DNA from: Planctomyces sp.
GTDB lineage: Bacteria > Planctomycetota > Planctomycetia > Planctomycetales > Planctomycetaceae
Direction: 5' to 3'
Assembly: GCA_016795105.1 (NCBI GenBank)
Contig: JAEUIH010000065.1
Span: forward strand, 1 to 41,083
DNA length: 41,083 bases
Below, in pieces: positions 1 to 33,846 of this stretch (its first letter is position 1; each line of letters starts with the position of its first letter). Below the pieces are notes generated by a model. It was not told the DNA's origin and made no database searches. It worked only from the letters and a program-made list of their open reading frames with translations. The position numbers and the translations under genes are program-made.

Positions 1-58
1 CCCTTTCTGAGCCCAATTCTCGCATCCACAAAATCCCCGTCAATTCAACTGGCTGCCA

Positions 59-1831
59 CTAAATCCCGTGAAGAACCAACAATAGCCGACCGGAGTCAAG
101 CAGCTCCTGATTGTCGAACAGCTTTCCGGCCTCGGTGTTCTGCAGCGATTTCACGACTGCTGAACCCTGCTGCATATCGCCCAGCATCGTGCCGAAAACT
201 GCGTTATTTTTCTCCGTGGCGATCGCCGTTGATGTTCCAACGGCAACCATGGTTGCGATCAGACCGGCAGCGGCTGTCTTGGCCAGCCCAGCCCGACTGC
301 TGACGGCGCCGAATCCGCGTGACAAAAGAGAGTTTCCGCGATCCAGCCGAGCCATTGCAGCGCTGGCTTCGTCGGTGGATTTCTTCATGCCGAGCATTCT
401 GCCAATCACCGTGTTTTGCACGCCGGTCATTCGGATCAGTCCCATAGTGGCCGATCGAATCGGACCGACCATGGACCATGTGCCGCGAGCCACGACGACG
501 GTCAACTTTGCGAGCGGCGTGAGGGCCGTGACGACTGTGCGAGTGGTGGTACCGACAATGAACGCCGTTTGAGCAAACGCACGAAAGGCTCGCGTGCCCA
601 GCTGGAGACCGCCTGTCAGCGGTGGCAGTCGTGATCTCAGGTCTTTCCATTCCGCCCTGGACTGAGCCAAAGCGAGAGAAACGGAGTGAATTGGATGCGT
701 TAGGAATGTCCATGCATACGTCGCAGCACGGATAATGCGTCGGGCACCTTCGACTTCTCGCATCATCATGCGTTGTGGAAGCAGCGCATAATACTGAGAT
801 CTCGCAAAGGTATCGGCGGTCCCTCCGAGTTCCTTCCAGACTCCGGTCATCACCCAGGCCTTGCCCCTGGCTTCAGCCGCGGCCGTACCGAACTTAGCGT
901 TCATCTCATCGATTTTTTCTGCCGCTGCATCTGCATAGGAAGTTACGGCATTCAGTGGACCGCGAATGGTCTCAATCTGAGACTTTGCAAATGGAAAAAC
1001 GGTCGACAGCAACGTCAGGGCAGACTGAGTCTCGTGCAGTTTGTGCACATGTTTTGACACAGTGTTGGACACAGCATCAAAACTCTGGCCCATTTGTCCG
1101 GCGGCTCCAACAGCGGCCGCGATCGATCCGGGAATGTCGCTCAGGAACGCGTCCGCCATTCCTCGGAGAGTTTCCACACCCTTAGACGCCGCTTCGCCTA
1201 ACGAAGTGAAGCTATTCTTCACGACATTCAGGGCAGGGTTCACAGGGATAGAATTCATTCCCATTCGGAACCGAGTCATATATCCGGCAGAGATACGAGT
1301 CTGAGTGCCGACTTCTCCAATTCCCGTCCGGACATTGCGTAACGTTCCGGAGATTCTGCCAAGCAACGCCAGCTGGCCGGCGGCGGCGGTCACCCTCACG
1401 AAGTTGACGCCGGAATTCTGTCCAGAGGACACACGGCCGGCCTCCGGCGTGCGAATCTGCCGACTGGCGTCGGCCAGAGCAATCATCTGGTATTTGGCCC
1501 GTTCGGTGCCATCAGCGAGACGCACAATCTTTCGTTGGTGCTCTTCCAGAGCTTTGGCCATCAGCTTCCGAGTGAAAGATTCTTCAAGACCCGACGCCTG
1601 TTTCTTGGCTTTGTCCAGAGTGTTCATCATTGGCTGCATGCGCAGCAACAACAGATCAACCTGAGCCGTTGGAATGCCGATCGCGTCTCCCATCGCTCGA
1701 AATGCCGCATCCATGCGATCGACGTGATTCAGAATGCCGTCCAGCTGCCGTGACAGATCACGAATATCTTCCATCGCATCACGTACGTGAGCATTGATGG
1801 AAAAATCAAGATCATCGAGCGGACCTGACAT
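59..1831 (-). CDS. Phage tail tape measure protein, truncated
   Basis: Likely N-terminal part of the tape measure protein, which sets tail length and is packed inside the tail tube. Residues 1-130 are helical (MSGPLDDLDFSINAHVRDAM at the start) and the middle is rich in Ala/Gly helices, as in this family. Near residues 540-580 it has the family's internal pattern (NAVFGTMLGDMQQG, then KSLQNTEAGKLFDNQELLDS), after which the family normally continues for hundreds of residues. Here the frame ends at LLLVLHGI, so the protein is cut within a conserved domain. A frame fragment reading IDGDFVDARIGLRK lies in another frame just downstream (about positions 1-45), which hints at frameshift or a junction. 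The start is ATG with AGGTGA four bases upstream. It lies nine bases after the chaperone gene, the usual place for a tape measure gene. Assignment rests on motif recognition and gene order. Confidence 0.75.
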   Translation of the reverse strand: MSGPLDDLDFSINAHVRDAMEDIRDLSRQLDGILNHVDRMDAAFRAMGDAIGIPTAQVDLLLLRMQPMMNTLDKAKKQASGLEESFTRKLMAKALEEHQRKIVRLADGTERAKYQMIALADASRQIRTPEAGRVSSGQNSGVNFVRVTAAAGQLALLGRISGTLRNVRTGIGEVGTQTRISAGYMTRFRMGMNSIPVNPALNVVKNSFTSLGEAASKGVETLRGMADAFLSDIPGSIAAAVGAAGQMGQSFDAVSNTVSKHVHKLHETQSALTLLSTVFPFAKSQIETIRGPLNAVTSYADAAAEKIDEMNAKFGTAAAEARGKAWVMTGVWKELGGTADTFARSQYYALLPQRMMMREVEGARRIIRAATYAWTFLTHPIHSVSLALAQSRAEWKDLRSRLPPLTGGLQLGTRAFRAFAQTAFIVGTTTRTVVTALTPLAKLTVVVARGTWSMVGPIRSATMGLIRMTGVQNTVIGRMLGMKKSTDEASAAMARLDRGNSLLSRGFGAVSSRAGLAKTAAAGLIATMVAVGTSTAIATEKNNAVFGTMLGDMQQGSAVVKSLQNTEAGKLFDNQELLDSGRLLLVLHGI

Positions 1832-1840
1832 CCAGTCACC

Positions 1841-2167
1841 TCAGTCTTCCATGCCTGCGATCTCTCGCATTTCTGCGAAGAGTCCTGCCGCTTCCGTTTC
1901 GGTCTTTGGTTCCCAGCGAATGCGATAGTGTTCCGGCTCCGCGTTGTGCTTCTCGAGCATCGTTTGTCTCAGCCAGAAAGTTTCCAGTGCGGATCTGGCA
2001 TCGGCTCTCTCAGGCTCGAACGGTTCGAGTCGTTCGTAGGCCTGCCATTCCATGAGTTGGCGAGCATTCAGATACTGCCCCAGATAATCCGGATGGGCTG
2101 ACAAATGCCCGCCAACGCCTTCCCGGCACAGGCGAAACAATGTCCGCCTGAGCCGGTCTGACCTCAG
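1841..2167 (-). CDS. Tail assembly chaperone, T part (reached by -1 frameshift)
   Basis: Corresponds to lambda gpT-like tail assembly proteins, which are made as a gpG-T fusion that chaperones the tape measure protein. The segment YLNARQLMEWQAYERLEPFEPERA is typical of the minor-tail-T type domain. No convincing start codon exists; only a TTG at 2140 could serve. The frame is open upstream to position 2167, exactly where the preceding gene carries an A AAA AAC slippery heptamer. A -1 slip there joins the two frames and gives a fusion of roughly 230 residues, with about 108 residues from this part. It ends nine bases before the tape measure start, matching the lambda-like order G, GT, tape measure. 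Independent translation from TTG 2140 (99 residues) is the alternative. Confidence 0.75.
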   Translation of the reverse strand: MRSDRLRRTLFRLCREGVGGHLSAHPDYLGQYLNARQLMEWQAYERLEPFEPERADARSALETFWLRQTMLEKHNAEPEHYRIRWEPKTETEAAGLFAEMREIAGMED

Positions 2168-2535
2168 TTTTTTTCCAGTTCCTCAGCCTGAGCTTCGAGA
2201 ACCTCGTCTTCCGCTCCGTTGTGCACGCTCACGAGCTTGACCAATGCCATGAACCAGCGTGTTTTCGTCTTTCCTGCCGTCTCGTAGACCTGAGTACCAG
2301 TCCACAACGGCTTGTTGTCAGTGCCGACGACGGAATCTGCAATCAGGTTGGCCTGGGCACGGCGTTCTGCCGATCCGCCTTTTCGGCAGGCTTCCTGATA
2401 TTCCCGCATCCGCTGAACCGATACGCTGGCGATTCGGACCTTCTTGGACGGGTCGCACGGAAGAAAGTACTCCCGCACATCCACTTCCTGAGCGGTTTCC
2501 AGATCTTCCAGCTTCAAATACTCATGATCTCCCAC
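2164..2535 (-). CDS. Tail assembly chaperone, G part
   Basis: Small acidic protein located between tail tube and tape measure genes, the position of lambda gpG-like tail assembly chaperones. It begins GDHEYLKLEDLETAQEVDV and contains DPSKKVRIASVSVQRMREYQ. I place the start at GTG 2535 because AGGGAG stands six bases upstream. An in-frame GTG at 2565 would add ten residues but has no such site. The C-terminus ends EELEKN-stop, and the last codons GAA AAA AAC form a slippery site that allows a fraction of ribosomes to continue into the T part. Gene order and frameshift are the main evidence; sequence similarity to gpG itself cannot be judged by eye. Confidence 0.75.
   Translation of the reverse strand: MGDHEYLKLEDLETAQEVDVREYFLPCDPSKKVRIASVSVQRMREYQEACRKGGSAERRAQANLIADSVVGTDNKPLWTGTQVYETAGKTKTRWFMALVKLVSVHNGAEDEVLEAQAEELEKN
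2167..2173 (-). promoter_or_regulatory. Programmed -1 frameshift slippery heptamer A AAA AAC
   Basis: On the minus strand the zero-frame codons are GAA AAA AAC TGA, so the heptamer A AAA AAC is in the correct phase (X XXY YYZ) for simultaneous -1 slippage, one codon before the stop. The -1 frame after it is open and leads directly into the T part. A short CTGAG/CTCAG inverted repeat (5 bp, 10-base loop) begins at the last base of the heptamer. That is closer than the usual 5-9 base spacer, so the true stimulatory structure is unclear. Confidence 0.8.
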
Positions 2536-2569
2536 GACGTTCTCCCTGCATTCATGATCTGTCACTGAA

Positions 2570-2597
2570 AACGGAGCTGATGGCCACCAGCTCCGTT
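2570..2597 (-). terminator. Intergenic hairpin before the chaperone gene
   Basis: Perfect 10-bp inverted repeat (AACGGAGCTG / CAGCTCCGTT) with an 8-base loop. Read on the minus strand it is followed by TTTTC, so it could act as a weak terminator or as an RNA-processing or attenuation structure between the 140-residue gene and the chaperone gene. Confidence 0.55.
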
Positions 2598-2626
2598 AAA
2601 AGAGTCGTTTCCTCGAGGTGTGCCGG

Positions 2627-3049
2627 TCAGTCAGCTTTTGGAGCTGGCTTGCTGGCCGGTTTGCTGGCTGGTGACTTGGATTGCAGTTCCGCAACCTCGT
2701 CTGAGTAGTACTTCAGCATTTCGTCCAGCCACTCCAGTTCGCCTTTGGACATCTGCTTTCTGATTTCTGCCTGATCCATACGAGCGAGGTTTCGCAGAAA
2801 CATCACCCGCTTTTCAGACTTCATTGCCTGCAGCACTTTGTCGGCACACTCATCGTCGGCCGGCGCCATGCATGCATTGGGCGGAAGACACAGACGCCAG
2901 CAATCCGGATCGTCGACGATTTCACCCACGTGCAAATTCAAAAACTGTTTCACATCGTACGGCTGACTGGCTTCTCTTGCTGCCTGACGGGCAGAGGCGG
3001 AATAGTTTGGGTTCACCATCTGCCCCGGTGATGTTCTCTTTGCCTTCAT
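2627..3049 (-). CDS. Hypothetical phage tail-region protein
   Basis: 140-residue protein of unknown function between the tail tube gene and the chaperone. It is helical and charged. Visible features are a PYDVKQFLNLHVGEIVDDPDCWRLC segment with an NACMAPADDECADK cysteine-containing stretch, a helical LARMDQAEIRKQMSKGELEW region, and a low-complexity Lys/Ala/Pro/Ser tail (SPASKPASKPAPKAD). I chose ATG 3049 because GGGAG lies six bases upstream; the TTG at 3055 abuts that site and cannot use it. Position in the operon suggests a structural or assembly role in the tail, but no family is recognised. Confidence 0.7.
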   Translation of the reverse strand: MKAKRTSPGQMVNPNYSASARQAAREASQPYDVKQFLNLHVGEIVDDPDCWRLCLPPNACMAPADDECADKVLQAMKSEKRVMFLRNLARMDQAEIRKQMSKGELEWLDEMLKYYSDEVAELQSKSPASKPASKPAPKAD

Positions 3050-3104
3050 GATCAACTCCCTGCCTTATTACGGAAACGAAAATACGTCAGAGAACACACT
3101 CAGA

Positions 3105-3536
3105 TCAGCTCGGAGAAACTTCGTTCAGTTCAATCACTTCGACGAACTTCACTTCCACTGATGCCATGAGACCGTTTCCGACTTCAAGGTCCACATCAAA
3201 CTTCGTCACGATGTACGTACACGCAATCTCGACGGCTGTGCCTCCCAGCACGATTTTTCCGACTCGTTCCGTGTGTTCGTTTTTTGCCTTTTGCAGATCC
3301 TGATGCACCGCCGACAAAGGATTGTGGATCAGATCGAACGTGGCGGACTGACCACCAGTGAGCCCGGTATCAAGTGGCTCCTCGTACGTCGAATCGAGGT
3401 CGGCGATTTCAACAGTTTTGTTCTCGCCAAAATTGACCTTCAGATTCTTGAGTCCCGGGACTTTCGTCAGCGTTGAGCTGATCGTTGTATAGAAAGCCGA
3501 TCCCTTGGCCTTGTGTGCGGTCACCTGCTTTGCCAT
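3105..3536 (-). CDS. Major tail tube protein (gpV-like)
   Basis: 143-residue protein with the pattern of a phage tail tube subunit: an N-terminal KGSAFYTTISSTLTKVPGLKNL segment, then alternating beta-strands (ATFDLIHNPLSAVHQDLQKA, GKIVLGGTAVEIACTYIVTK, SVEVKFVEVIELNEV). The tube forms the inner conduit for DNA in long-tailed phages, which fits a neighbouring tape measure gene. ATG 3536 has AAAGGA about seven bases upstream and lies one base after the previous gene's stop. A subunit of a different tail protein class is possible, but order and fold pattern favour the tube. Confidence 0.7.
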   Translation of the reverse strand: MAKQVTAHKAKGSAFYTTISSTLTKVPGLKNLKVNFGENKTVEIADLDSTYEEPLDTGLTGGQSATFDLIHNPLSAVHQDLQKAKNEHTERVGKIVLGGTAVEIACTYIVTKFDVDLEVGNGLMASVEVKFVEVIELNEVSPS

Positions 3537-3537
3537 T

Positions 3538-3840
3538 TCAACGTCCTTTCAGAGTATCGTTGAGCCGTTTAATGAAGGCCTGTCGCAATCGCGGCCTGAG
3601 TGCTTTCCACTGACTTTCGAGCCGTCGCAGTGTCGTTGTCCCGCGCGTCGGATAGCGAGTACGGAACCTCAGGCCAACGGTGCCCCGTGTGCCTTTCATC
3701 TGCAGGCGGATCGCCTGACGAGTCTTGACACGATCGGCTGGAGTTGTCTGCAAAACGGATTTCACGGCTGCGGAACAAACGGATTCGACATGATCCGCAA
3801 CCTGTGATTTCAGATAGTCTGCAAACTCATCAAGCTTCAC
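3538..3840 (-). CDS. HK97 gp10-like tail completion/neck protein
   Basis: 100-residue basic protein, MKLDEFADYLKSQVADHVES at the start, with a helix followed by a strand region (RLQMKGTRGTVGLRFRTRYP) and a basic helical end (RRLESQWKALRPRLRQAFIKRLNDTL). This is the general look of HK97 gp10-type minor tail or tail-completion proteins. It starts at GTG 3840, which overlaps the upstream gene's stop as GTGA, so translation is probably coupled. Assignment is by order (head closure gene upstream, tail tube gene downstream) more than by motif. Confidence 0.6.
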   Translation of the reverse strand: MKLDEFADYLKSQVADHVESVCSAAVKSVLQTTPADRVKTRQAIRLQMKGTRGTVGLRFRTRYPTRGTTTLRRLESQWKALRPRLRQAFIKRLNDTLKGR

Positions 3841-4172
3841 GTCTCGTAGACTCCTTCGTTCCCATCCAAATCCACCAGTGTTGGTTCGTCCTGAGTCTCA
3901 ATCTGATCCGTGTATCCCTGCAGCATCATTTCGGGTTTGCGTCCGGGTTTGGTATGGATTCCGATCAGGTTGATGACCTGAGCATCTCCATGCCGAAACC
4001 ACCGGACCCGAGTGTCCCTGTGATCCAGAAGCTGCAGTTGTTTGTCCTGCGGAAGTGTGATCTCAAGAGTCTGAGTGTCGATCGCAGCTCGGCGACGGCA
4101 GAGTTCGGTCCATTCTCCATCACCGCGTATCTCGATCGCAATTCTCTCAGGATAGTGTCGACTTCCGCTCAT
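3837..4172 (-). CDS. Head closure / head-tail adaptor protein
   Basis: 111-residue all-beta protein resembling SPP1 gp16/HK97-type head closure proteins: SGSRHYPERIAIEIRGDGEW at the start, then WTELCRRRAAIDTQTLEITLP and VRWFRHGDAQVINLIGIHTK. These small barrels seal the neck after DNA packaging. It overlaps the upstream connector by four bases (ATGA at 4169-4172) and the downstream gp10-like gene by GTGA, so it lies in a tight neck-gene cluster. Confidence 0.6.
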   Translation of the reverse strand: MSGSRHYPERIAIEIRGDGEWTELCRRRAAIDTQTLEITLPQDKQLQLLDHRDTRVRWFRHGDAQVINLIGIHTKPGRKPEMMLQGYTDQIETQDEPTLVDLDGNEGVYET

Positions 4173-4753
4173 GTACTGATTCCGATCAAATTGCGATCCC
4201 TCAGCACAAGGCCCGCAATCAGTGATTCAATTCGTCGCTGAATTCTTTCTGCCTCGACGGTGGCATGTTCGTGATACTCAAGATCGCAGAAGAGCTTCAC
4301 AGCATGGAGCACGACCGTTGGGCAGATCAGACTGCCGGCTGAATAGGTGATAATCACACTTTCAGGATTGTCGAGCGCCGTTGGCCAGCTTGTGCCGTAA
4401 ACCGGAACGATCTGACCTGGTACTGCCGATGTCTGCACCACATACAGAGCAGAGCTCAACGTCTGTGACGCATTGCTGGAGTCCCGATAGACAATTGAGC
4501 TAACGGACAGAACTGGCGGCTTTGGAAGATAAACCGGATCATTGCCAGCCGGAAACTCAGACAATTTCAACTGACAGTTCTGTTCGCGAAATGCACGGCC
4601 AGTTCTGCGTTCGATCATTTCAAAGGCGGCTTCGATTACCGTCTGAATGCTGTCGTCATCATCGGAGTGATCAACGCGCAGGTGCTTTTTTGCGTCCGCC
4701 AGTGATAGCGGGCAAACTGCACTAAACGACGTCACTGCGAAAAATGCCGACAT
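4169..4753 (-). CDS. Head-tail connector protein (HK97 gp6-like)
   Basis: 194-residue protein with the signature layout of phage head-tail connectors of the gp6/phiE125 gp8 type: PLSLADAKKHLRVDHSDDDDSIQTVIEAA (N-terminal helix pair), MIERRTGRAFREQNCQLKLSEFP, a PVYLPKPPVLSVSSIVYRDS strand region, VIITYSAGS, and a helical end. The ring sits under the portal. ATG 4753 has AAGGA seven bases upstream. Confidence 0.8.
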   Translation of the reverse strand: MSAFFAVTSFSAVCPLSLADAKKHLRVDHSDDDDSIQTVIEAAFEMIERRTGRAFREQNCQLKLSEFPAGNDPVYLPKPPVLSVSSIVYRDSSNASQTLSSALYVVQTSAVPGQIVPVYGTSWPTALDNPESVIITYSAGSLICPTVVLHAVKLFCDLEYHEHATVEAERIQRRIESLIAGLVLRDRNLIGIST

Positions 4754-4855
4754 TCACGCATCCTTGATTCTGCTGCCGCGGTTGGTTCGCCCTGCAGGAA
4801 GTTGAGACGACTTGCAACTGAGGCAGCACGGACACCGAAGTGCCCTTGACTCCGA

Positions 4856-5251
4856 TCAATTCCCTTCGGTCGGTTTCTGATCCGCAGCCTGCTCAGCTCG
4901 ATTCATGGCTTCCAGAGCTTCTGAAACCTTCGCTGCGATCGCTTTGGTGATCCCTTTGATCTCTTTTGCCCAAGCGTCACCTTTGGCTGCCACCAGCTCT
5001 TTCACGCCATCAACGGAGGTGATCCCAGCAGCAGCAAACTTGTCTGATCCGGGGAAATCTGCAAATGAGCCCAAAGATGGCTGAGTGTCGACTGTTCCAA
5101 GTTCTCCACCTAATTTCGCAGAACCGTGAGCAATCCATCGATCGGCGATTCGCTTGTCGACTTCAAGCACGGTGCCTGGTTCTCGCCATGCCGGGGCAAT
5201 GAATTCCCCGTTTATCATGGTGATCACCACCAATTCTTCTGTCTGGGCCAT
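4856..5251 (-). CDS. Hypothetical phage protein with helix-hairpin-helix-like segment
   Basis: 131-residue protein between the capsid and connector genes. The N-terminal half (EELVVITMINGEFIAPAWRE, then VLEVDKRIADRWIAHGSAKL) looks like the small beta-rich proteins often found after the capsid gene. Residues ~75-115 (FAAAGITSVDGVKELVAAKGDAWAKEIKGITKAIAAKVSEAL) read like a helix-hairpin-helix pair. I use ATG 5251 because AGGA sits eight bases upstream of it; an in-frame ATG at 5266 overlaps that site. Function is unknown; a head-tail accessory or decoration role would fit the position. Confidence 0.65.
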   Translation of the reverse strand: MAQTEELVVITMINGEFIAPAWREPGTVLEVDKRIADRWIAHGSAKLGGELGTVDTQPSLGSFADFPGSDKFAAAGITSVDGVKELVAAKGDAWAKEIKGITKAIAAKVSEALEAMNRAEQAADQKPTEGN

Positions 5252-5298
5252 TGGAGTTTCCTGCATTTTGTGGACGAAAAATCAGCAAAACAGAGAAA

Positions 5299-5328
5299 CG
5301 GAGGGCAGATGTTTTGATCTGCCCTCCG
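5299..5328 (-). terminator. 12-bp hairpin downstream of the capsid gene
   Basis: Perfect 12-bp inverted repeat (CGGAGGGCAGAT / ATCTGCCCTCCG) with a 6-base loop, 20 bases after the capsid stop codon on the minus strand. It is followed by a T-rich but interrupted tract (GTTTCTCTGTTTTGC), so partial termination or 3'-end protection of capsid mRNA is plausible. Confidence 0.65.
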
Positions 5329-5348
5329 CAGAAAAACCGGATCACAGA

Positions 5349-6692
5349 TCAGGCAAGAATGTCAACGCACTTCGAAAACGCAGCTGCGTATCGCACGTTG
5401 ACGTCTGCTGACTGGAACGCAGAGATCAGGACGTTGCCCTTGGTCGACTCAGAGAACGGATCGACGATAATGTCGAGTCCGCCCCACAGAGCGAACACCA
5501 GATTGGTGAAGTCGCCGAAGATGGCGGCTGAGCAAACTCCGGAGCTTGTTCCTTTTGTCAGGTTGCTCGGTACCAGAGTGCTTACTGCAACCGGATATCC
5601 GTTCATTTCGCCGTTTTCCATGAGGAATCGGCCTGAACCTGAGTCCTTCAGCACAGTCTTCGCACTACCGCGAACTTTGCTGTTGGTCAGGTAGGCCGGC
5701 GAATTGCGGAGTGCGTTGGAAGTACCAACGACGGTCTCCATTTCAACCACCTTTGCCCAGGTGAGTGCCAGTCCGTTGGTGCCCATGGCGACGGTGTTTG
5801 TGCCGGAGACCGCCAGCAGACCGGTTGGCTGGTTGCTGGATCCGGTACCGTTGATTCCACCGTTATCCATGCCGACGGCCATGCCGTCAACGAGATCCTG
5901 ACGGACCATTGCTTCCGCGTCGAGACTCGACTGCTTCATGAAGCTGCGAGTGATGCGAGTTCGACCGGTCAGGCACTTCTCAGAGAAGGCCACGGTGCCA
6001 ACAGTGATGTCGGTCGCAGTGGCGGCGGCATCTTCAGCGACCCATTCGAAGCCGATCTTTGCCGTCTTCTTCGGAATCGCAAAAGCTCCAACCATGTCAC
6101 TCAGGATCACTGCCCCGAGTTGGCGCAGCACAACCGCATCTCGCAGCACATCGATCAGAGTTGGTGCCAGAATCGTGGGGATTGCACCTGCACCCGCAGA
6201 CAGATTGATTACAGTACCGCGTTTTTCCGCATTGTTTGCCATGCGGAGAGTGTGAGGCACCATCAGACCGCGAACGGTCATGCCCGCATCCTGCTTGCGT
6301 TTCGCCAGCTCCTGATGCACTTCCCATTCAACTCCGCCTTCTTTTTCGTCGCCACATCGCATGCGAATGGCACGCATCAGGCTGTAACCGTGCTTGTCCG
6401 GATCAAGAATTGGGTTGTCTGGTTCTTTGCTGCGCAAGTCTTCCAGAATATTGTCTTCCGGCTTTGTGCCACCTGGTGCGGTACGCTTATCCGGGTTGGC
6501 GATTTCAAGGGCGGAAACGCGTTCTTCGCGGTCGATTTCTTCGTTGAGCGACTCGATCGCTTTGCTGCGTTCGTCGAAATCCTTCTTCTTGGCTTCATCG
6601 CCAGGAGCGGCGGACAGAGCATCGTGAGCAGCTCGGAGCTGCTTTACGGCGTCGGCCTTGCGTTCTTTGAGCTGCTTCAGCTTCACGGACAT
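5349..6692 (-). CDS. Major capsid protein, HK97 fold
   Basis: 447 residues, the usual length for an HK97-type major capsid precursor. Residues 1-65 form a charged coiled coil (LKQLKERKADAVKQLRAAHD), matching the delta/scaffold domain that the prohead protease removes. The mature part has the expected N-arm and core segments: SAGAGAIPTILAPTLIDVLR, LGAVILSDMVGAFAIPKKTA, RITRSFMKQSSLDAEAMVRQ, NGTGSSNQPTGLLAVSG, LKDSGSGRFLMENGEMNGYP, and AIFGDFTNLVFALWGGLDI near the C-terminus. ATG 6692 has AGGA nine bases upstream. The gene stands alone between two non-coding gaps, each with a perfect hairpin, directly after the protease gene as usual in HK97-type modules. Confidence 0.93.
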   Translation of the reverse strand: MSVKLKQLKERKADAVKQLRAAHDALSAAPGDEAKKKDFDERSKAIESLNEEIDREERVSALEIANPDKRTAPGGTKPEDNILEDLRSKEPDNPILDPDKHGYSLMRAIRMRCGDEKEGGVEWEVHQELAKRKQDAGMTVRGLMVPHTLRMANNAEKRGTVINLSAGAGAIPTILAPTLIDVLRDAVVLRQLGAVILSDMVGAFAIPKKTAKIGFEWVAEDAAATATDITVGTVAFSEKCLTGRTRITRSFMKQSSLDAEAMVRQDLVDGMAVGMDNGGINGTGSSNQPTGLLAVSGTNTVAMGTNGLALTWAKVVEMETVVGTSNALRNSPAYLTNSKVRGSAKTVLKDSGSGRFLMENGEMNGYPVAVSTLVPSNLTKGTSSGVCSAAIFGDFTNLVFALWGGLDIIVDPFSESTKGNVLISAFQSADVNVRYAAAFSKCVDILA

Positions 6693-6809
6693 TGCTGGTT
6701 TTCCTTGTTAGGGCGGTTCGAAATGAATCAAATCGCAATCAGCGTGTCCGTCTGGGCGGTCTCCGCTTCATGCAGAGAACGTCGCGATCAGATCGGCTGG
6801 GCGAACTGA

Positions 6810-6865
6810 GCTGCGACGATCTCCGGATGTGCGGTGGATCGTCGCAGCGCTTGCCAGCTGCAAGC
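6810..6865 (-). repeat. Tandem hairpins between protease and capsid genes
   Basis: The 180-bp gap between the two genes holds a perfect 12-bp inverted repeat (GCTGCGACGATC at 6810-6821, GATCGTCGCAGC at 6837-6848, 15-base loop). It is followed at once by a 6-bp hairpin (GCTTGC at 6849-6854, GCAAGC at 6860-6865). A 21-bp part of this (6837-6857) recurs as a direct repeat at 12165-12185. Possible roles are attenuation, mRNA processing ahead of the highly expressed capsid gene, or a phage-specific repeat. Confidence 0.7.
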
Positions 6866-6872
6866 CAGATTC

Positions 6873-7577
6873 TCAACTCAGCTCCGCAATCCGCAGTTCA
6901 CGCTCTCGGCGTTCGCGATCCGGCAGGGCAACGGCATCACGCCATCCGCGGAATTCTTCTTCGATCAGCTTCACTTCCGGATTGTCTGATCGCCGGTCGA
7001 GAAACATGCATGGAGACCGAGTCCCGGCAGTTGTGCCTGAATACGCCGGGTAAGTCACCGGCCCAACGTCGTACAAATCCACAGACTTGATGTTGCGGAT
7101 GTAAAGAGTGATTTTGTTTCCGTCGACTTCAACCTCTTCCTCGGTCCACTCAACGCCACCGCGAGAAATTGTGAACGCGAACGAACTGCCATCGAGATCG
7201 CCGCGCTCCAGCAAAGTCACGGTATCGCGGCCGACCATGGTTGGAGGCGGACTGATCCGATAGGACAGCCCCTCTTTTGTCACCTCCAGTTGCAGGGTGT
7301 TGTTCGAAGATCGGCCCAACAACAGTCGTGGATCATGATTTTGCAAGGCCCTGACGTCATCTTCCTTCACGGCTCGATCAAACGCCCCGGGCATGATCCG
7401 TTCGAAATAGTTGTCCCAGAGGCGATACTGCGTATTCGCCGAATCGTTGGCGTTGTAGAACACCGCCGCAAGACCGGTGATATCCGGCAATTCACCATCT
7501 TTCGAATCGGCTCGCTTTTGCAGGGCCACAGTCGCACGTCGGGCGGTATTTGGCAGATAAAGTCGACGAATTGTCAT
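6873..7577 (-). CDS. HK97-family prohead protease
   Basis: 234-residue serine protease of the U35/HK97 prohead protease group, which cleaves the capsid delta domain during head maturation. Visible landmarks are GLAAVFYNANDSANTQYRLW, the FERIMPGAFDRAV motif, His81 in LQNHDPRLLLGR (catalytic His position), and Ser131/Ser132 in GDLDGSSFAF (catalytic Ser position). SVDLYDVGPVTYPAYSGT follows and is the family's conserved end of the core. ATG 7577 overlaps the portal stop as ATGA, so this start is preferred over an upstream in-frame ATG that would lie deep inside the portal gene. Confidence 0.92.
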   Translation of the reverse strand: MTIRRLYLPNTARRATVALQKRADSKDGELPDITGLAAVFYNANDSANTQYRLWDNYFERIMPGAFDRAVKEDDVRALQNHDPRLLLGRSSNNTLQLEVTKEGLSYRISPPPTMVGRDTVTLLERGDLDGSSFAFTISRGGVEWTEEEVEVDGNKITLYIRNIKSVDLYDVGPVTYPAYSGTTAGTRSPCMFLDRRSDNPEVKLIEEEFRGWRDAVALPDRERRERELRIAELS

Positions 7578-9109
7578 TGTGCTTTTCCTCGAATCAAAGA
7601 CAGGATTTCGGTCGCAAGTGTTGTTGGTTCGACTTCGATTGCCACGGTCCCAATGCACGCCCGAAACAGCACGTCTGGGACACCATCCAGCCGGCTGAGA
7701 TCGCCTCCGCAAAGCTGTACCAATGGTTTGAATGCGGACTTGACGACATCACCGTGTTTTTCTGCGAGCGAAGTTCGGAACTCATCCCATTCATCCGGTT
7801 TCGTGCGCTGAGCCTGCAGGTGCACGCGTTTTTGCATTCTTGCAACAACATCTGCCAGAGCGGACACGCAATAGCCATCGAAAGCGGCTCGCTGTGAGTC
7901 GACGGCTACATTTGGGTCCGGATCCGTCGGATTCTGGCTGTCTGGCGTCATGTTGACTGGTTTCAGCAGCTCGTCACCTCCAGCCACCGGAGGCAATCCA
8001 AGGATTTCCCGTCCTTCGTTCGGCAGCATGATCGGCCCGCCGACGTTCTTGTACAGGATTTCCGCCCGATCTTTCATGTTTGTGCGCGTCAGGCTTTCAC
8101 GAACGGCCTCAACATCGTGCGATTCGGTCAGCTGTTCGTCCTCCGTCAGCAGTTTTTGGTACTCCATTTCAAACTGCACCAGCCAGGGGTCAAGCGAATC
8201 GTCACGGAAAGAGCGGTTTTCCTCTTCGAGTGACTTATAGGAACTGTTGCCCGTGCCCTGGAGCTTATGCACGGGCAGGCCCAGGAGATTGGCGACGTCC
8301 TTCAGCGAAAACTCTCGAGCTTCCAGCAACTGCGTCTGTTGAGCGGAAAGATTGAGCGTTTTCAGCTCAGCTTTTTCGAGTACAGGGATTTCGTGAGGAT
8401 TCTCAATCGCTCTTTTGAGCGGGCCGGACTGACTCTGCATTTTGGCCCAGCGGTCATCATCCAGATAATCCTCTGTCTTCACGTACGTTGATGGTGTTCC
8501 GCCGGAAGCAAAGTAAGAGGTTGCGTAGTTTTGCTGTGCAATGGCGAGTCCGAGGACGTCTTTTGCATAAGTGGTGATCGGATCAAGACCGCCAAAGCCG
8601 TCAACGCCCATGCCCTTGATGTGCATGATTTCGTGAGGCTCAAAGTATCCGGTGTTTCCTTCAATCACGTAAACCGTTCGGCGCCCAACAATCTTCTGGC
8701 TGATCTTCCGTGGATCCAGAATCCACAAGGCCACCGGACGCATGGAGTCATCTCGTTCGATCCATCCGTATCCGTTTCCAGTCGTAATGGCATGGACGGT
8801 CAGGACTCTGCGAAACTCGAAGGCTGACAGTTCGTGCCATCTGGCCCATTTGCGAACCAATTGCCAGGCAGGGTGAATGATGGCTTTTTGATTGCCCTGT
8901 TTGACGTGAAAAGGCGTCTTGCCAATGTAGTCGGAAATCAGTTGGACGCCGCGTTTGTAGGCAGCAACCTTCAGCGCTGTATCACGTGTTACGACAAATC
9001 CGGAACTTGAAACCGACATTGAGAGCGAACCGCCCATTGCAGCCCACATGGCAAGATCGTAACCGTATCGCGTCGCACGTTTGGCCAGTCTGCGGAGCCA
9101 TTTGATCAC
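7574..9109 (-). CDS. Phage portal protein, HK97 family
   Basis: 511-residue portal subunit; twelve copies form the DNA channel at the head vertex. Recognisable segments are VAAYKRGVQLISDYIGKTPF, HPAWQLVRKWARWHELSAFE, GNGYGWIERDDSMRPVALWI, MHIKGMGVDGFGGLDPITTY, NSSYKSLEEENRSFRDDSLD and the LTESHDVEAVRESLTRTNM / MLPNEGREILGLPPVAGGDEL end seen in many HK97 portals. It starts at GTG 9109, overlapping the terminase stop as GTGA, and its own stop overlaps the protease start as ATGA. Confidence 0.93.
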   Translation of the reverse strand: MIKWLRRLAKRATRYGYDLAMWAAMGGSLSMSVSSSGFVVTRDTALKVAAYKRGVQLISDYIGKTPFHVKQGNQKAIIHPAWQLVRKWARWHELSAFEFRRVLTVHAITTGNGYGWIERDDSMRPVALWILDPRKISQKIVGRRTVYVIEGNTGYFEPHEIMHIKGMGVDGFGGLDPITTYAKDVLGLAIAQQNYATSYFASGGTPSTYVKTEDYLDDDRWAKMQSQSGPLKRAIENPHEIPVLEKAELKTLNLSAQQTQLLEAREFSLKDVANLLGLPVHKLQGTGNSSYKSLEEENRSFRDDSLDPWLVQFEMEYQKLLTEDEQLTESHDVEAVRESLTRTNMKDRAEILYKNVGGPIMLPNEGREILGLPPVAGGDELLKPVNMTPDSQNPTDPDPNVAVDSQRAAFDGYCVSALADVVARMQKRVHLQAQRTKPDEWDEFRTSLAEKHGDVVKSAFKPLVQLCGGDLSRLDGVPDVLFRACIGTVAIEVEPTTLATEILSLIRGKAQ

Positions 9110-10782
9110 AGGAACCTCACAACCTGCCCCACGGGCTTTGAGATGAGTTTGCGTTGAAAATGCAGGGACTCGGCAAATGCCATCAAAATTGACACTAACG
9201 GGTCAATTTTTTCGCTGGAAGCTTGCTTCGATGGCATCATCAGACCAGCAACGTTCGTGTAGGCCTGCATATTCTGCTGACACCAGTTCAGCAGTGGATC
9301 ATCGCCGTGGATGAACTTCCCATCAGCCAGAAGTTTGAGAAACTCACGCATCGGCTCGTTGTAGTTTGCGGTAGTCTGCTTGAAGTCTGCGCAGTCAATT
9401 CCTTTGCCGACGAGCTCAGCCCCGAACTGTGCTGCGTTATTGGGATCACACGCCATGCTTTTCAGATTGTAGATCTGCCGTGCATGATCGATCGCCGCGT
9501 GAATAGCATGTACGTCGGTCGTGTTTCCTTCCGTTACCACGATATGGCCACTTTTGATCAGGCTGGCGATCGGTTCTGCTGTTAGATCGCGTGGTCCGTC
9601 TGACGGGCAGAATGCCCTGGCTTTGCAATACCACAAGCCGTTTGCCGACAACGGAGGGAAAACCAATCCGAATGCGCTCAAGTCGTCGCGGAATCCAAGG
9701 TCGACGGCACCATGGCAGACGCGGCCGGCCAGACTGGGGATCGGTTTTGCTCCGAGTACCCAGGCTCGGTCCGGGATTGCCCTCGTAATCGAGGCAACTT
9801 TTCGGTTGGTATAATATCGCTCAAAATCACGAGCATCAGCGGGATTAAGGCGGGCTTTCTCAGCGAGTTCCTCATAGGACTCCCATTTGGCCGTCGTGCC
9901 AAGGTGCGGATTCGCCTTTGGCCAGCACGACTTGTCAAACATGTCATCTTCATCGTCGATGCAGAGGATGAAGGCAAACAGGGAATCGTCCTGAGCTTTG
10001 CCATGCAGGATCTTGCATGCGTACTCACGTTCAGTTTGCCAGAGTCGCGATTGATCATCACCGGCAGTCGTGATCACCACAAATATTGGTTGTGGGCGGG
10101 CAGCACTCCCGGTGCGGAGTTTTGCCCACAATTTGAGTTGAGCACGCGTTTTCCACTCGTGCAATTCGTCGAATACCACGGTCGACGGAAAAAAACCGTC
10201 CGAACCGCCGCCGTCGGCCCCGAGTGCACGGATGATGCCCTTGTCCGCCTTCAGCATCGTGTGCAGAGATTCTTTGATCGTGATTCTGCTTTTGAGGAAT
10301 TCTCTGCCTTCGACGAATCGTTGAGCTTCTTCCCAGACGAGTTTGCTCTGTGATCGCTTGGTGGCGGCGCAGTAAATCTCCGGGCGTCCTTCTCCATCCA
10401 GCAGGAAGAGCATCAACATCAGAGCGGCTGCAAATGCAGTTTTTCCCCATTTGCGAGCCGCTTCGATGTGCGCGTATCGAAACCTGCGAGCATTGTTTGC
10501 TATGCGTTTCCAGCCCATCAGATTCCAAACTATGAACATCTGGTCGGGCTCCAAATGAAACGGCTTTCCCTGAAACTCCGCTGAGCTATGCAAAAGCAAC
10601 GGAAAGAACTCAATGGCTGTCTCAGCCGTCGCCTGATCGAAATAGAAGGGACAGGTTTTTGACTGAGCTCGTTTCAAATCATTCAGATAACGTTCCACAG
10701 CCAACTGTTGAAGTCGGCCCGCCACGATGCGTCCCGACTTCACGCCGTCAACATACTGCTGAATGATTTGAGCAGAGTTCAC
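9106..10782 (-). CDS. terL: Terminase large subunit
   Basis: 558-residue packaging motor of the HK97/P27-associated type, combining an ATPase and a nuclease. The Walker A-like motif is ARKWGKT (residues 109-115). The Walker B motif is TVVFDELHEW with Asp205-Glu206. The coupling motif is ITTAG (237-241). The nuclease half has an acidic start GAVDLGFRDDLSAFGLVF (Asp361) and a later ACDPNNAAQFGAEL segment. GTG 10782 overlaps the small-subunit stop as GTGA, and the 3' end overlaps the portal start, so terS-terL-portal-protease form a translationally linked unit. Confidence 0.95.
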   Translation of the reverse strand: MNSAQIIQQYVDGVKSGRIVAGRLQQLAVERYLNDLKRAQSKTCPFYFDQATAETAIEFFPLLLHSSAEFQGKPFHLEPDQMFIVWNLMGWKRIANNARRFRYAHIEAARKWGKTAFAAALMLMLFLLDGEGRPEIYCAATKRSQSKLVWEEAQRFVEGREFLKSRITIKESLHTMLKADKGIIRALGADGGGSDGFFPSTVVFDELHEWKTRAQLKLWAKLRTGSAARPQPIFVVITTAGDDQSRLWQTEREYACKILHGKAQDDSLFAFILCIDDEDDMFDKSCWPKANPHLGTTAKWESYEELAEKARLNPADARDFERYYTNRKVASITRAIPDRAWVLGAKPIPSLAGRVCHGAVDLGFRDDLSAFGLVFPPLSANGLWYCKARAFCPSDGPRDLTAEPIASLIKSGHIVVTEGNTTDVHAIHAAIDHARQIYNLKSMACDPNNAAQFGAELVGKGIDCADFKQTTANYNEPMREFLKLLADGKFIHGDDPLLNWCQQNMQAYTNVAGLMMPSKQASSEKIDPLVSILMAFAESLHFQRKLISKPVGQVVRFL

Positions 10783-11315
10783 CGCCGCTTTGCTGCCTTC
10801 TTAGAAGCTTTCTTTGCAGCTCTCTTGCGTCTCGCCGGTGTAACGGGCTTTTCCGCGATGGCCACCGGTGGAGTTGCTGCCATGCGACGAGCCAGCTGCT
10901 CAAGCGGATCAAGTTGCTCCAGATCGACGGGCTTGACCGACGTGGATCCGGTAAGTCGGATTCGACCGTTTGGCGTCATCCCGTATTCGATCAGTAGTTC
11001 GCGGACAGCTTTGGCCTGCGCACGGACAATCCCGACGAGCGGGTTGGGGGCAGGTGAGCCCGATTCCCCGCAGTAGACCACCAGTTCGTCCATGTCGATC
11101 TTCTCTGCTGCATCCAGATAGAACGCAATCGCATCGCAGAGCATCGCAAACCCGATCGCATCCAGAGATTCCAGCAGACCGAGTCGGTTCAGTACCGGTC
11201 CATACTGGTTCCAGAGTGCAACCGATCGTGAATCGACAAGCCAGTCCGGAGGTTCCGGCATAGGCCCGGGGTCGATCGTTACTTTTGGTTTCGGCTTGGG
11301 ACCTCGTGTCGCCAT
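10779..11315 (-). CDS. terS: Terminase small subunit, P27 family
   Basis: 178-residue DNA-recognition subunit. It starts MATRGPKPKP, the typical basic N-terminus of P27-type small terminases, then PDWLVDSRSVALWNQYGPVL, LESLDAIGFAMLCDAIAFYL (helical core) and AVRELLIEYGMTPNGRIRLT. It ends in an Ala/Lys/Arg tail (RRKRAAKKASKKAAKRR) likely to bind DNA. ATG 11315 is chosen because the longer frame (to 11369) has no family-like extension and overlaps the HNH gene. The start lies five bases after the HNH stop. Confidence 0.88.
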   Translation of the reverse strand: MATRGPKPKPKVTIDPGPMPEPPDWLVDSRSVALWNQYGPVLNRLGLLESLDAIGFAMLCDAIAFYLDAAEKIDMDELVVYCGESGSPAPNPLVGIVRAQAKAVRELLIEYGMTPNGRIRLTGSTSVKPVDLEQLDPLEQLARRMAATPPVAIAEKPVTPARRKRAAKKASKKAAKRR

Positions 11316-11320
11316 CGCAG

Positions 11321-11626
11321 TTACTTTCGATTGTCTGCAACCGTTTTCCGTCCATGACATTTCCAGCACAATGGCTGATGGTTGGATGACTTCCAGAACA
11401 AGGGATCAGACGGCCCATGGATTGCCTGAATGTGGTCGACGCATTCCGATGCTGTGATTCGGCCGGCGGCGTAGCAGTGAGCACACAGCGGGTGCCGATC
11501 CAGATACGATCGTGAGTATTCCTGCCACTTGCGTCCATATCCTCTACGATGGGCATTCGGGCGATTTTCCCTGCGTTTTCCGATCTGCTCAGAGTCTCGT
11601 CGGCTGCGTAGAGGTCTGTTTGGCAT
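11321..11626 (-). CDS. HNH endonuclease
   Basis: 101-residue HNH nuclease of the kind encoded next to terS in many HK97-type phages, where it assists DNA packaging. Residues follow the family: RRGYGRKWQEYSRSYLDRHP, Cys48-x2-Cys51, Asp64-His65 in VDHIQAIHG, Asn82-His83 in SNHQPLCWKCHGRKT, and Cys87-x2-Cys90-His91. The two Cys pairs probably bind one zinc and the D-H/N-H residues form the active site. It sits directly upstream of terS in the same operon. The start is ATG 11626 with a weak GGA upstream. Confidence 0.9.
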   Translation of the reverse strand: MPNRPLRSRRDSEQIGKRRENRPNAHRRGYGRKWQEYSRSYLDRHPLCAHCYAAGRITASECVDHIQAIHGPSDPLFWKSSNHQPLCWKCHGRKTVADNRK

Positions 11627-11740
11627 CGGTCATCCAGTGAGGAAATGGCACTATGCGTGCCGCAGACAAGGGCGATGGTGAGTAACAGGAACCGCATGAT
11701 CAAATCTCCAAATGTGACTGTGTGATTGTGGCTGTGAGCA

Positions 11741-12061
11741 TCAGTCCAGGAGAGCGATGTTCACGACGGTTTTCGTTCCGGCCGCCTCTTTGGCGGCTTC
11801 AACTGCCTCCGGCCCCATGGCCTTCAGAAACTCTTTGGCCCATGGCACCGAGTTTGCCTGCTGTTCGACGGTGGCGACCATCTTCCCCTTCTGGAAGAGG
11901 TTCTTTCCCTCTCCCTGGAGGCGCGTCAACACCTCTTCCTCAATCATTTTGTTCTCATCGCGAAGAGGCTTTGACTCGCCTTCGATCGCCTTGATCTTCG
12001 CTTTGTTGTCGAGATACTTCTTCATCAGCGTTGAGGTGGCAGGTATTCCCATGATTGACAT
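11741..12061 (-). CDS. Hypothetical phage protein, coiled-coil
   Basis: 106-residue protein with a strongly helical, charged centre (LMKKYLDNKAKIKAIEGESK, then LRDENKMIEEEVLTRLQGEG). It ends with a short strand (TKTVVNIALLD), and PWAKEFLKAMGPEAVEAAKE lies between. The layout resembles small phage proteins that carry a coiled coil plus a core about oxidation or host-nuclease inhibition, but I recognise no family. It is the first gene of the minus-strand phage block in this window. The start could be either of two in-frame ATGs (12061 or 12052), neither with a strong Shine-Dalgarno site. Confidence 0.6.
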   Translation of the reverse strand: MSIMGIPATSTLMKKYLDNKAKIKAIEGESKPLRDENKMIEEEVLTRLQGEGKNLFQKGKMVATVEQQANSVPWAKEFLKAMGPEAVEAAKEAAGTKTVVNIALLD

Positions 12062-12164
12062 CCATGTCTAAGATTGCGGCCAAAAAAATGCGGGGCATCC
12101 TTGCCCCAGTCCGTCGTCCACGGACACGGCGTCCTGCCGATTCCCCCATCAGAGGTACAGGATC

Positions 12165-12185
12165 GATCGTCGCAGCGCTTGCCAG
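12165..12185. repeat. 21-bp direct repeat copy, phage-internal
   Basis: A 21-base stretch containing GTCGCAGCGCTTGCCAG is identical to 6837-6857 in the capsid-protease gap, on the same strand. Here it lies in the divergent region between the minus-strand coiled-coil gene and the plus-strand arm. The paired upstream arm that makes the hairpin at the other site is absent here. Confidence 0.7.
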
Positions 12186-12207
12186 TGTCAACGGAGGACG
12201 GACGCCC

Positions 12208-12477
12208 ATGGACTTCCAGCAATATCACTCCCGCCGGCTGCGCACGCCGAGACACGAGAGAGAAAAGAGTCGAGTGACCCTGCAGTTGACGACTCAAGAG
12301 AAACTCGCAATCGATTGGCTCAGCAGAATTCCGGAACCATTTCGTGAACGCTTGCCGAAGGCGTTTCGGGAACTGGCCGGCCAGGCAGCTCGGACCATCG
12401 CACGCGAGCTAAGCGGAGAAAAAATCAGGCAGCTGGCCGATTTTCACAAGGCACAAATGAGTCCGGACCAAAATTGA
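12208..12477 (+). CDS. Hypothetical prophage protein
   Basis: 89-residue protein from ATG 12208 (MDFQQYHSRRLRTPRHEREK), with GGAGG about eleven bases upstream; the frame stays open further 5' but overlaps the divergent gene. The second half is helical and amphipathic (LTTQEKLAIDWLSRIPEPFR, LPKAFRELAGQAARTIAREL). No family recognised. It is the first gene of a plus-strand arm at the prophage end, where regulatory or host-interaction genes commonly lie. Confidence 0.5.
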   Translation: MDFQQYHSRRLRTPRHEREKSRVTLQLTTQEKLAIDWLSRIPEPFRERLPKAFRELAGQAARTIARELSGEKIRQLADFHKAQMSPDQN

Positions 12478-12537
12478 CCCCCCCATCGCGAAATACGCGC
12501 ATTTCAGAGGATGACTCACGCTGTGGTCTCCGTCTGA

Positions 12538-12813
12538 ATGAGCACCAGAAAACGGACCCCCTACCCCATGAGAGAACGTCAGATCAAACAACTCGTACGC
12601 GAAGTGCGTCAGTGCGCAGGTGTCGAGAAGACTCCGGATCAGATCGCTGGTATCTTGTTTTCACGGTTCAAAAGGCCTCAAACTGCCTTGAACAAGTTGC
12701 TCGCATGTCCTGATATGTGTCAGCAGTTTGCAAGGGAGATCGCTCTGGATACATCTGATCTCCCCACTGTGTATGACATCCTCGATTCAGGCTCATCAAC
12801 TAACGACAATTAA
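12538..12813 (+). CDS. Hypothetical small prophage protein
   Basis: 91-residue protein (MSTRKRTPYPMRERQIKQLV). Helices such as RERQIKQLVREVRQCAG and TPDQIAGILFSRFKRPQTAL suggest a small helical, possibly DNA-binding protein, but no helix-turn-helix is clear. No Shine-Dalgarno site stands before ATG 12538 or the in-frame ATG 12568. It precedes the Ntn-hydrolase gene by 44 bases on the same strand and may be co-transcribed with it. Confidence 0.5.
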   Translation: MSTRKRTPYPMRERQIKQLVREVRQCAGVEKTPDQIAGILFSRFKRPQTALNKLLACPDMCQQFAREIALDTSDLPTVYDILDSGSSTNDN

Positions 12814-12857
12814 CTGCAACCAACTGCAACCAGCACACAATTGAAGGGATTTGATCG

Positions 12858-13406
12858 ATGACAGCCATCGCAGCTGTGAAAGAAGGTGGAACAGTTTGGA
12901 TTGGCGGTGATGCTGCAGGCGTGGCTGGATACTCGATCCAGACTCGATCTGATCCGAAGGTATTCGTGAATGGGCCAATGATCATCGGATACACAAGCTC
13001 TTTTCGCATGGGCAACCTTCTGCAGTACGTCTTCAGCCCGCCGGAAGTCTCTGTTGGCCAGAGCGGAATGGCCTATATGGTGAAGAGGTTCATTCCCGCT
13101 GTGAAAGAATGCCTGAAAGACGGTGGTTTTCAACAGACGCAGAATCAAGTCGACGAAGGCGGCACATTTCTGGTCGGCTTCAACGGCGATCTTTTTGAAG
13201 TCGAAGATGATTATCAGGTCGGACGCGTAACGCAGGATTACCATGCATGCGGGTGCGGCAGAGATATCCTCCTTGGCAGCTTGCATGCCACTCAAAATCT
13301 GAATCTTTCGGCAAAAGACCGCATCTTGGCAGCCTTAACGGCCGCGGCTGAGTTTTCCGCTGGAGTCCGAGGGCCATTCACGATTCTGTCTGGACCACCG
13401 TCATAA
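12858..13406 (+). CDS. HslV/proteasome-like Ntn hydrolase, prophage-borne
   Basis: 182-residue protein with the layout of a proteasome beta-type/HslV peptidase. After removal of Met the chain begins with Thr1. Asp17 falls in WIGGDAAG and Lys33 in SDPKVF, exactly the Thr1/Asp17/Lys33 numbering of the proteasome active site. GPMIIGYTSSFRMG follows, where HslV has its glycine-rich turn after Lys33, and a CGCGRD segment lies where HslV has GSGG. Length is close to HslV (about 175 residues). No HslU-type unfoldase or second peptidase subunit is present. A GGGA Shine-Dalgarno site lies about eight bases before ATG 12858. It sits at the prophage edge, 80 bases before the tRNA att site, so it may be a lysogeny-expressed accessory gene. 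The fold is inferred from motif spacing; substrate is unknown. Confidence 0.7.
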   Translation: MTAIAAVKEGGTVWIGGDAAGVAGYSIQTRSDPKVFVNGPMIIGYTSSFRMGNLLQYVFSPPEVSVGQSGMAYMVKRFIPAVKECLKDGGFQQTQNQVDEGGTFLVGFNGDLFEVEDDYQVGRVTQDYHACGCGRDILLGSLHATQNLNLSAKDRILAALTAAAEFSAGVRGPFTILSGPPS

Positions 13407-13485
13407 TCCGTATTTCCGATCAGTCCTTGACCGGATTGTGGCGTGAAGTACACTTTTGCGGCGATGTTTACTTTTCGCTTCCACC

Positions 13486-13532
13486 CAGGACTGAAAATCC
13501 TGGTGTCGCCGGTTCGATCCCGGCTCTGCCCA
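13486..13532 (+). tRNA. 3' half of tRNA-Phe(GAA): prophage attachment site
   Basis: An anticodon stem CAGGA/TCCTG with 7-base loop CTGAAAA (anticodon GAA) is followed by variable loop GTGTC, T-arm GCCGG-TTCGATC-CCGGC, acceptor 3' strand TCTGCCC and discriminator A. These match bacterial tRNA-Phe, including the GTGTC variable loop. No D-arm and no 5' acceptor strand (GGGCAGA) lie upstream, so this is only the 3' half. It marks where an integrase exchanged strands in the tRNA gene; the intact tRNA should lie at the other prophage end. CCA is not encoded. Confidence 0.85.
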
Positions 13533-13540
13533 TTGCGTAA

Positions 13541-33607: not shown

Positions 33608-33846
33608 GGGCAGGAGTTGGAAGAGATCGCTGATTTTTCTTGAGCCCGTCTTTCATATCTCTCGTCATTCCGGGAATTCTCCGGGGAATTCCTGTTGCGC
33701 CCAATGAAAAACAGGGTTCTCACGGTCAGAGGCTTTGTTTCTCCAGCTCTCTGAGCTTGAAAACGAAGCTGCACACTGGAATCGTTCTCCTGCACTGGCG
33801 ACCGACTCCACAACTTAGATCTCCTCTTTCTCTCAGGCGAGTCACT

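What the first reader, a model, noticed from the sequence alone, without database searches (positions are those of the whole stretch)
12858..13406. Stand-alone HslV/proteasome-like peptidase at the prophage edge
Thr1, Asp17 and Lys33 fall at exact proteasome numbering after Met removal, and the length matches HslV, yet no HslU-like unfoldase is nearby. A phage-carried Ntn peptidase next to the att site could serve lysogeny, head maturation or interference with host proteolysis. I know no established role.
Basis: partly seen in the sequence, partly recalled or inferred. Interest (0 to 1): 0.7.

Follow-up and report, generated by a model that had tools for sequence, protein, structure and literature searches.

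The report
Phage-carried proteasome-like peptidase (AAH family)
A phage integrated in this bacterium carries, right beside its junction with the host chromosome, a small enzyme related to the proteasome; it appears to belong to a family already in print whose job nobody has yet worked out.

Summary
Window 12858-13406 (+) encodes 182 residues with Thr1, Asp17 and Lys33 after Met removal, 79 nt before an attR whose 49-bp core equals the 3' part of a host tRNA-Phe. AlphaFold2 gives a confident Ntn sandwich (pLDDT 94.8); nearest solved folds are BPH, then HslV. The three residues are invariant in 80 of 80 viral-set rows and 76 of 76 genome rows. It is not HslV: the 99.96% complete host genome shows no HslU over cut-off, no PF00227 match and no second phrog_1040 match. 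Four helices, 182 residues and genome relatives that are 66 of 80 alphaproteobacterial or actinobacterial (my count) fit the published AAH family (PMC8665760), not PPH. Ser129 of the proteasome is replaced by Cys in the core family. No fixed partner was seen, and 24 of 28 relatives' loci with a recognised capsid gene also carry a prohead-type protease, which disfavours head maturation. Most likely: an ATP-independent, ring-forming Thr peptidase used as a phage accessory. Known kind, function open; interest modest.

The parts
12858..13406 (+). AAH-type proteasome-like Ntn peptidase, 182 aa (Thr1, Asp17, Lys33; Cys132 at the proteasome Ser129 place)
12844..12849 (+). Shine-Dalgarno-like AAGGGA before the ATG
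   Evidence: sequence; relatives show the same habit, 66 of 80 against 13.7 expected
12538..12813 (+). 91-aa ORF just upstream on the same strand, possibly one transcript; no family match and no phage match
   Evidence: operon inferred
12055..12477 (+). 140-aa ORF upstream on the same strand (true start unsure); no family match and no phage match
13486..13534 (+). attR core, 49 bp identical to the 3' part of tRNA-Phe(GAA) at C11:94222-94270
11321..11626 (-). HNH endonuclease of the prophage packaging module
   Evidence: phrog_144, 5.2e-21
10779..11369 (-). terminase small subunit
9106..10782 (-). terminase large subunit
7574..9109 (-). portal protein
6873..7712 (-). HK97-type prohead protease, Peptidase_S78 (frame; true start likely inside)
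   Evidence: 8.5e-33
5349..6692 (-). major capsid protein (Phage_capsid)
   Evidence: 7.6e-38
59..1831 (-). probable start of the tape measure protein, cut near the contig end
   Evidence: reading only; no Pfam match

Best explanation
The gene encodes an active N-terminal-threonine peptidase of the AAH family, carried by a temperate phage as an accessory gene. Shown: the fold by prediction, the conserved catalytic set, a start codon placed directly before Thr, the prophage setting, and no HslU, PF00227 or second phrog_1040 match in the host. Inferred: host methionine aminopeptidase exposes Thr1 without a propeptide; the subunits form a BPH-like double ring; without an unfoldase the ring cuts peptides and unfolded or flexible protein segments; and this serves the phage as proteolysis of host or phage proteins, in infection or lysogeny, not as capsid maturation.
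For: Thr1, Asp17, Lys33: 80 of 80 rows (79 viral loci and the window; L076, cut at its 5' end, left out; near-identical rows kept); 76 of 76 genome rows (4 of 80 dropped for an interrupted frame). Start-type codon directly before Thr in 80 of 80, with a Shine-Dalgarno-like word in 66 of 80 against 13.7 expected from other start-Thr sites of the same loci. Model pLDDT 94.8 with four helices; BPH best in PDB by fold (5ovt, TM 0.82, E 1.4e-11) and by profile (5ovu, 7.7e-5). BPH is a propeptide-free, unfoldase-free tetradecamer (PMC5777263, passages and section 7). Host. Settings differ: at least one of TerL, portal, capsid or S78 in 43 of 80 viral loci; ligase, phosphohydrolase and tRNA-guanylyltransferase genes of large phages in 10 of 80; RNR, TS, DHFR or PhoH nearby in 6 of 12 phage regions fetched; housekeeping genes in the one Azospirillum locus annotated (L150). 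So no one assembly partner.
Against: No activity or oligomer was measured. Ser129 of the proteasome (numbering recalled) is Cys here, and the place I read as Asp166 is Ala in this copy (E in 52 of 80 and 70 of 76 rows); catalysis could be changed or weak. The place I read as oxyanion Gly47 is Ser here. In the wider set Thr1 is not fixed: 12 of 13, with Ser in phage pT24. A single-chain model says nothing sure about rings. The late-operon position in many relatives could mean a virion-linked role after all.
Confidence: 0.5

Rival explanations
1. It is a head-assembly peptidase, trimming a portal, scaffold or terminase-linked protein.
For: In 80 viral loci, 31 hold TerL, 36 portal and 28 a recognised capsid gene (profiles built from these loci); 69 of 69 TerL/portal hits lie on the gene's strand; 6 of 80 read TerL - gene - portal. 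PBECO4 has an annotated head maturation protease about 4 kb upstream of its copy. In L029, L033 and L045 no other prohead-type protease was recognised.
Against: The window phage and five relatives tested have an S78 protease (6 of 6). Of 28 loci with a recognised capsid gene, 20 show S78 by my profile and 4 more a ClpP-type protease (L046, L072), XkdF (L073) or an S78-capsid fusion (L048); L057 is cut at the capsid gene; 3 show none in the one ORF tested in each. In the window the gene is on the opposite strand to the late genes. Several large phages keep it by nucleotide-metabolism genes.
Confidence: 0.15
2. It works with a host AAA+ partner such as ClpX in place of HslU.
For: The host has ClpX; fold is HslV/BPH-like.
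Against: No unfoldase stood out beside the gene in the clusters annotated; the 2021 survey found no co-occurring AAA+ partner for the new homologues (PMC8665760).
Confidence: 0.15
3. It is a narrow processing or ligating enzyme on one substrate, as connectase is.
For: The stretch after Gly43 stays near-fixed also in 13 proteins chosen without that motif (G44 and S48 13 of 13, F49 and R50 at 90% or more), as a conserved substrate pocket would be.
Against: The model shows no helical insertion before the first helix and keeps both H1 and H2, unlike connectase as described in PMC8665760.
Confidence: 0.15
4. It is an inert relic of phage gene shuffling.
For: 4 of 80 genome loci carry an interrupted frame; rare in the host phylum.
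Against: Few replacement changes and invariant catalytic residues.
Confidence: 0.05

Closest known systems
[quoted passage not shown] Fuchs, Alva, Lupas 2021)
   Same: Group I type fold with catalytic set, no propeptide, found in phages and in alphaproteobacteria and actinobacteria, also in Firmicutes; function unknown
   Different: Host appears to be a planctomycete (my inference); Table 1 of the paper marks no PVC members for AAH. Membership rests on traits; the AAH reference sequence could not be fetched
PPH (proteasome homologue of phages and hosts)
   Same: Phage-borne proteasome-like subunit
   Different: PPH has about 140 residues and lacks helix H2; this has 182 and four helices
BPH
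   Same: Nearest solved fold and profile match; no unfoldase, no propeptide
   Different: 18-21% identity; BPH has a long, strongly acidic pore loop and GSG where this has GCG
HslV
   Same: Fold, size, Thr1/Asp17/Lys33
   Different: No HslU over cut-off in the genome; about 18% identity; Cys for Ser at the 129 place

Membership tests
AAH | Proteasome-like beta fold with Thr1, Asp17, Lys33 | tested here: met
AAH | Helices H1-H4 all present, no large insertion, no propeptide | tested here: met
   (H49-58, H70-88, H135-145, H152-166)
AAH | Occurs in alphaproteobacteria, actinobacteria and phages | tested here: met
   best 80 of 169 genome relatives: 49 alphaproteobacteria, 17 actinobacteria, 7 Firmicutes, 7 others (counted by me from titles); branches mixed with phage branches
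AAH | Clusters with the published AAH sequences | not testable with these tools
   reference accession WP_035979212 is named in the paper but no tool here fetches it
PPH | About 140 residues, lacks helix H2 | tested here: not met
   182 aa, second helix 70-88
HslV | HslU partner encoded in the same cell | tested here: not met
HslV | Matches the Pfam proteasome family (PF00227) | tested here: not met
HslV | Fold and catalytic triad | tested here: met
BPH | Heptameric double ring with acidic pore loop | not testable with these tools
   single-chain model only
S78 prohead protease | Peptidase_S78 profile match | tested here: not met
   the window's S78 gene is another ORF

The most novel reading that the evidence does not exclude
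The prophage brings the cell's only proteasome-type chamber: a ring that needs no unfoldase, with a cysteine beside the active Thr (in place of Ser129) that could gate it by redox state, used to cut host proteins during infection or lysogeny.
Probability: 0.12. Interest if true: 0.6.

Novelty: new member of a known kind. Interest (0 to 1): 0.32.

Why it matters
The family is widespread in phages (396 viral relatives from one motif) and its catalytic set is strictly conserved in the rows, yet its role is open. This copy sits in a host where no other proteasome-type subunit was found, a clean setting for asking what an unfoldase-free subunit does for a phage. The Cys-for-Ser129 signature and the frequent place in the packaging operon give handles; the parts of the 2021 survey that I read do not mention them.

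Tried and rejected
A single-sequence scan of viral contigs found nothing; the profile scan worked. Replacement of the prohead protease was tested and disfavoured. A possible host HslU turned out to be ClpX. PPH membership was rejected on length and helices. Four neighbours in one Azospirillum locus (ElbB, CysS, NAD synthase, PmbA; L150) gave no common theme. Literature: the rows listed (listings capped; 29, 1, 1, 640, 2, 331 and 1 papers held the terms) showed no experimental role for AAH or PPH. One phage paper notes two HslV genes without HslU (PMC7823757, passages). A jumbo-phage survey argues that patchily distributed phage peptidases may target host proteins (PMC7824862, passages). Of PMC8665760 I read the outline, parts 1-4 of 6 and passages; of PMC5777263 passages and section 7; of PMC7289586 and PMC12345140 passages. 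Limits: conservation at residues 44-53 is partly built in by the scan motifs, and that at 73-81 for the genome loci; loci are the best 80 of 396 and of 169; near-identical loci were kept in the counts; ORF calling was simple and slightly favoured the gene's strand; tree bootstrap had not settled. After the filing check I added a control for the start sites and a look at the 8 capsid loci without S78; both moved the text, neither the odds.

Full report
The ORF at 12858-13406 (+) gives 182 residues beginning Met-Thr, with Asp and Lys at 17 and 33 after Met removal. A Shine-Dalgarno-like AAGGGA lies at 12844-12849. PHROGs places the protein in phrog_1040, 'peptidase HslV family', E 9e-22; Pfam and NCBIfam give no proteasome match. 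By tblastn 178 of 50,697 phage records match at E up to 10, with Moorella phage MTATph1 best at 50.8% identity over 97% of the query.

Fold. A profile scan of viral contigs found 396 relatives, of which the best 80 were kept; a scan of bacterial and archaeal species genomes found 169, 80 kept. On 80 rows (79 viral and the window; L076 left out as cut) Thr1, Asp17, Lys33, Gly101, Phe103, Gln119 and Gly131-Cys132-Gly133 are invariant, among others. On 76 genome rows (4 of 80 dropped for an interrupted frame) the triad is again invariant and Cys132 is kept in 68. Invariance at residues 44-53 is partly built in by the scan motif. In 13 more diverse proteins chosen without it, Asp and Lys are 13 of 13, Thr1 is 12 of 13 (Ser in phage pT24), and the GxG middle is Cys in 5 and Ser in 8. 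Profile alignments set this Cys against the Ser of GSG in BPH, HslV and an archaeal proteasome beta subunit; that this is proteasome Ser129 is recalled. AlphaFold2 on 74 rows gives pLDDT 94.8 and pTM 0.90 with four helices. Foldseek ranks BPH first (5ovt, TM 0.82, 18% identity), then HslV and proteasome beta subunits; the profile's best solved relative is also BPH.

Which member. The 2021 survey by Fuchs, Alva and Lupas (PMC8665760; parts 1-4 of 6 read) named 22 new proteasome homologues. PPH has about 140 residues, lacks helix H2 and lives in phages and hosts; AAH is found in alphaproteobacteria, actinobacteria and many phages. This protein has 182 residues and both H1 and H2. Of its 80 genome relatives I count 49 alphaproteobacteria, 17 actinobacteria, 7 Firmicutes and 7 others by record title. 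The tree shows an Azospirillaceae-type branch of 27 rows and a mainly actinobacterial branch among phage branches. These traits say AAH; direct clustering with the published AAH sequences was not possible. In the tree the window groups with L016, L017 (protein identical to L106 of Spongiibacter) and L018 (100/98).

Setting. Bases 1-13534 are one end of a prophage: late genes on the minus strand, then an HNH endonuclease gene, a 106-aa minus-strand ORF, three plus-strand ORFs ending with this one, then attR. The 49-bp core recurs at C11:94222-94270 inside an intact tRNA-Phe. Some 10 and 24 kb from it on the same contig lie a cytosine methylase gene and a tape measure fragment, read here as the rest of the prophage; the integrase there is my reading only, with no Pfam match. 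The host looks planctomycetal from its gene content (my inference; ECF sigma TIGR02999 and large Ser/Thr kinases). Among 392 sampled genomes of the phylum, 8 match the profile: the window's at 266 bits and 7 others at 25-36 bits.

No partner found. The host genome (99.96% complete) has no PF00227 match, one phrog_1040 match, the window's own, and no HslU over the cut-off: the best HslU-like frame is ClpX. Of 14 control genomes 9 ring for phrog_1040 and 10 for PF00227, so the searches can work.

Neighbours in relatives. Of 80 viral loci, 43 show at least one of TerL, portal, capsid or S78 in the held stretch; TerL is directly upstream in 11 and within 1.5 kb downstream in 12; portal directly downstream in 9; TerL - gene - portal in 6; 69 of 69 TerL and portal hits share the gene's strand (the profiles were built from these loci, and related loci are not independent). 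The 28 loci with a recognised capsid gene: 20 also show S78; of the other 8, L046 and L072 have a ClpP-type protease before the capsid gene, L073 an XkdF protease, L048 an S78-capsid fusion; L057 is cut at the capsid gene; L029, L033 and L045 show none in the one ORF tested in each. Ten of 80 sit among ligase, phosphohydrolase and tRNA-His guanylyltransferase genes of large phages. Of 12 phage regions fetched (one unannotated), 6 have RNR, TS, DHFR or PhoH genes nearby; PBECO4 also has a head maturation protease about 4 kb upstream. In the Azospirillum locus L150 it follows ElbB, with CysS, NAD synthase and PmbA nearby. The window copy is unusual in standing opposite to the late genes, next to attR, where lysogenic accessory genes often sit (recalled).

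Reading. Strict catalytic conservation, a start codon directly before Thr with a Shine-Dalgarno-like word in 66 of 80 against 13.7 expected and few replacement changes argue for an enzyme active without a propeptide. Changing neighbours and coexistence with prohead proteases argue against a dedicated capsid role. The likeness to BPH, a tetradecamer without an unfoldase (PMC5777263), suggests an ATP-independent ring peptidase. What it cuts is unknown; a host-directed or quality-control role is the most economical guess, in line with the suggestion for patchy phage peptidases in PMC7824862 (passages). One viral locus, L061, holds two tandem copies only 30% identical, both with the full triad, one with GCG and one with GSG, which hints that mixed rings may exist.

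Verdict. Real, correctly spotted, but a known kind: most likely an AAH-type proteasome homologue, function open. New here, as far as my reading goes, are the probable planctomycete prophage setting, the Cys signature, the packaging-operon habit and the coexistence with prohead proteases.

Noticed in passing
L061:7454-8576: Two tandem AAH genes, 30% identical, both with Thr1/Asp17/Lys33, one GSG and one GCG: possible mixed-subunit assembly.
   Followed up: partly
L002:6001-6558: Moorella phage MTATph1: the deposited CDS starts at 6043, 14 codons after the Met-Thr start, so its annotated protein lacks the catalytic Thr.
   Followed up: partly
L146, L149, L155, L156 near 7905-8546: Four Rhizobium copies have a reading frame interrupted by an in-frame stop after about 38 residues.
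   Followed up: no
L006:6001-7167 and L013:5001-5984: Relatives with long C-terminal extensions, in phages where PhoH and RNR genes are neighbours.
   Followed up: no
L103:10967-12061 (C11): A host protein-arginine kinase gene (McsB-like) lies about 1 kb from the tRNA-Phe attachment site.
   Followed up: no
L104:3698-3707 (C11): A run of 10 N lies near the prophage's presumed other half on C11, so the scaffold join there is doubtful.
   Followed up: partly
window 33640-41082: Very long host ORF (2480 aa) with repeated motifs, probably a surface protein.
   Followed up: no
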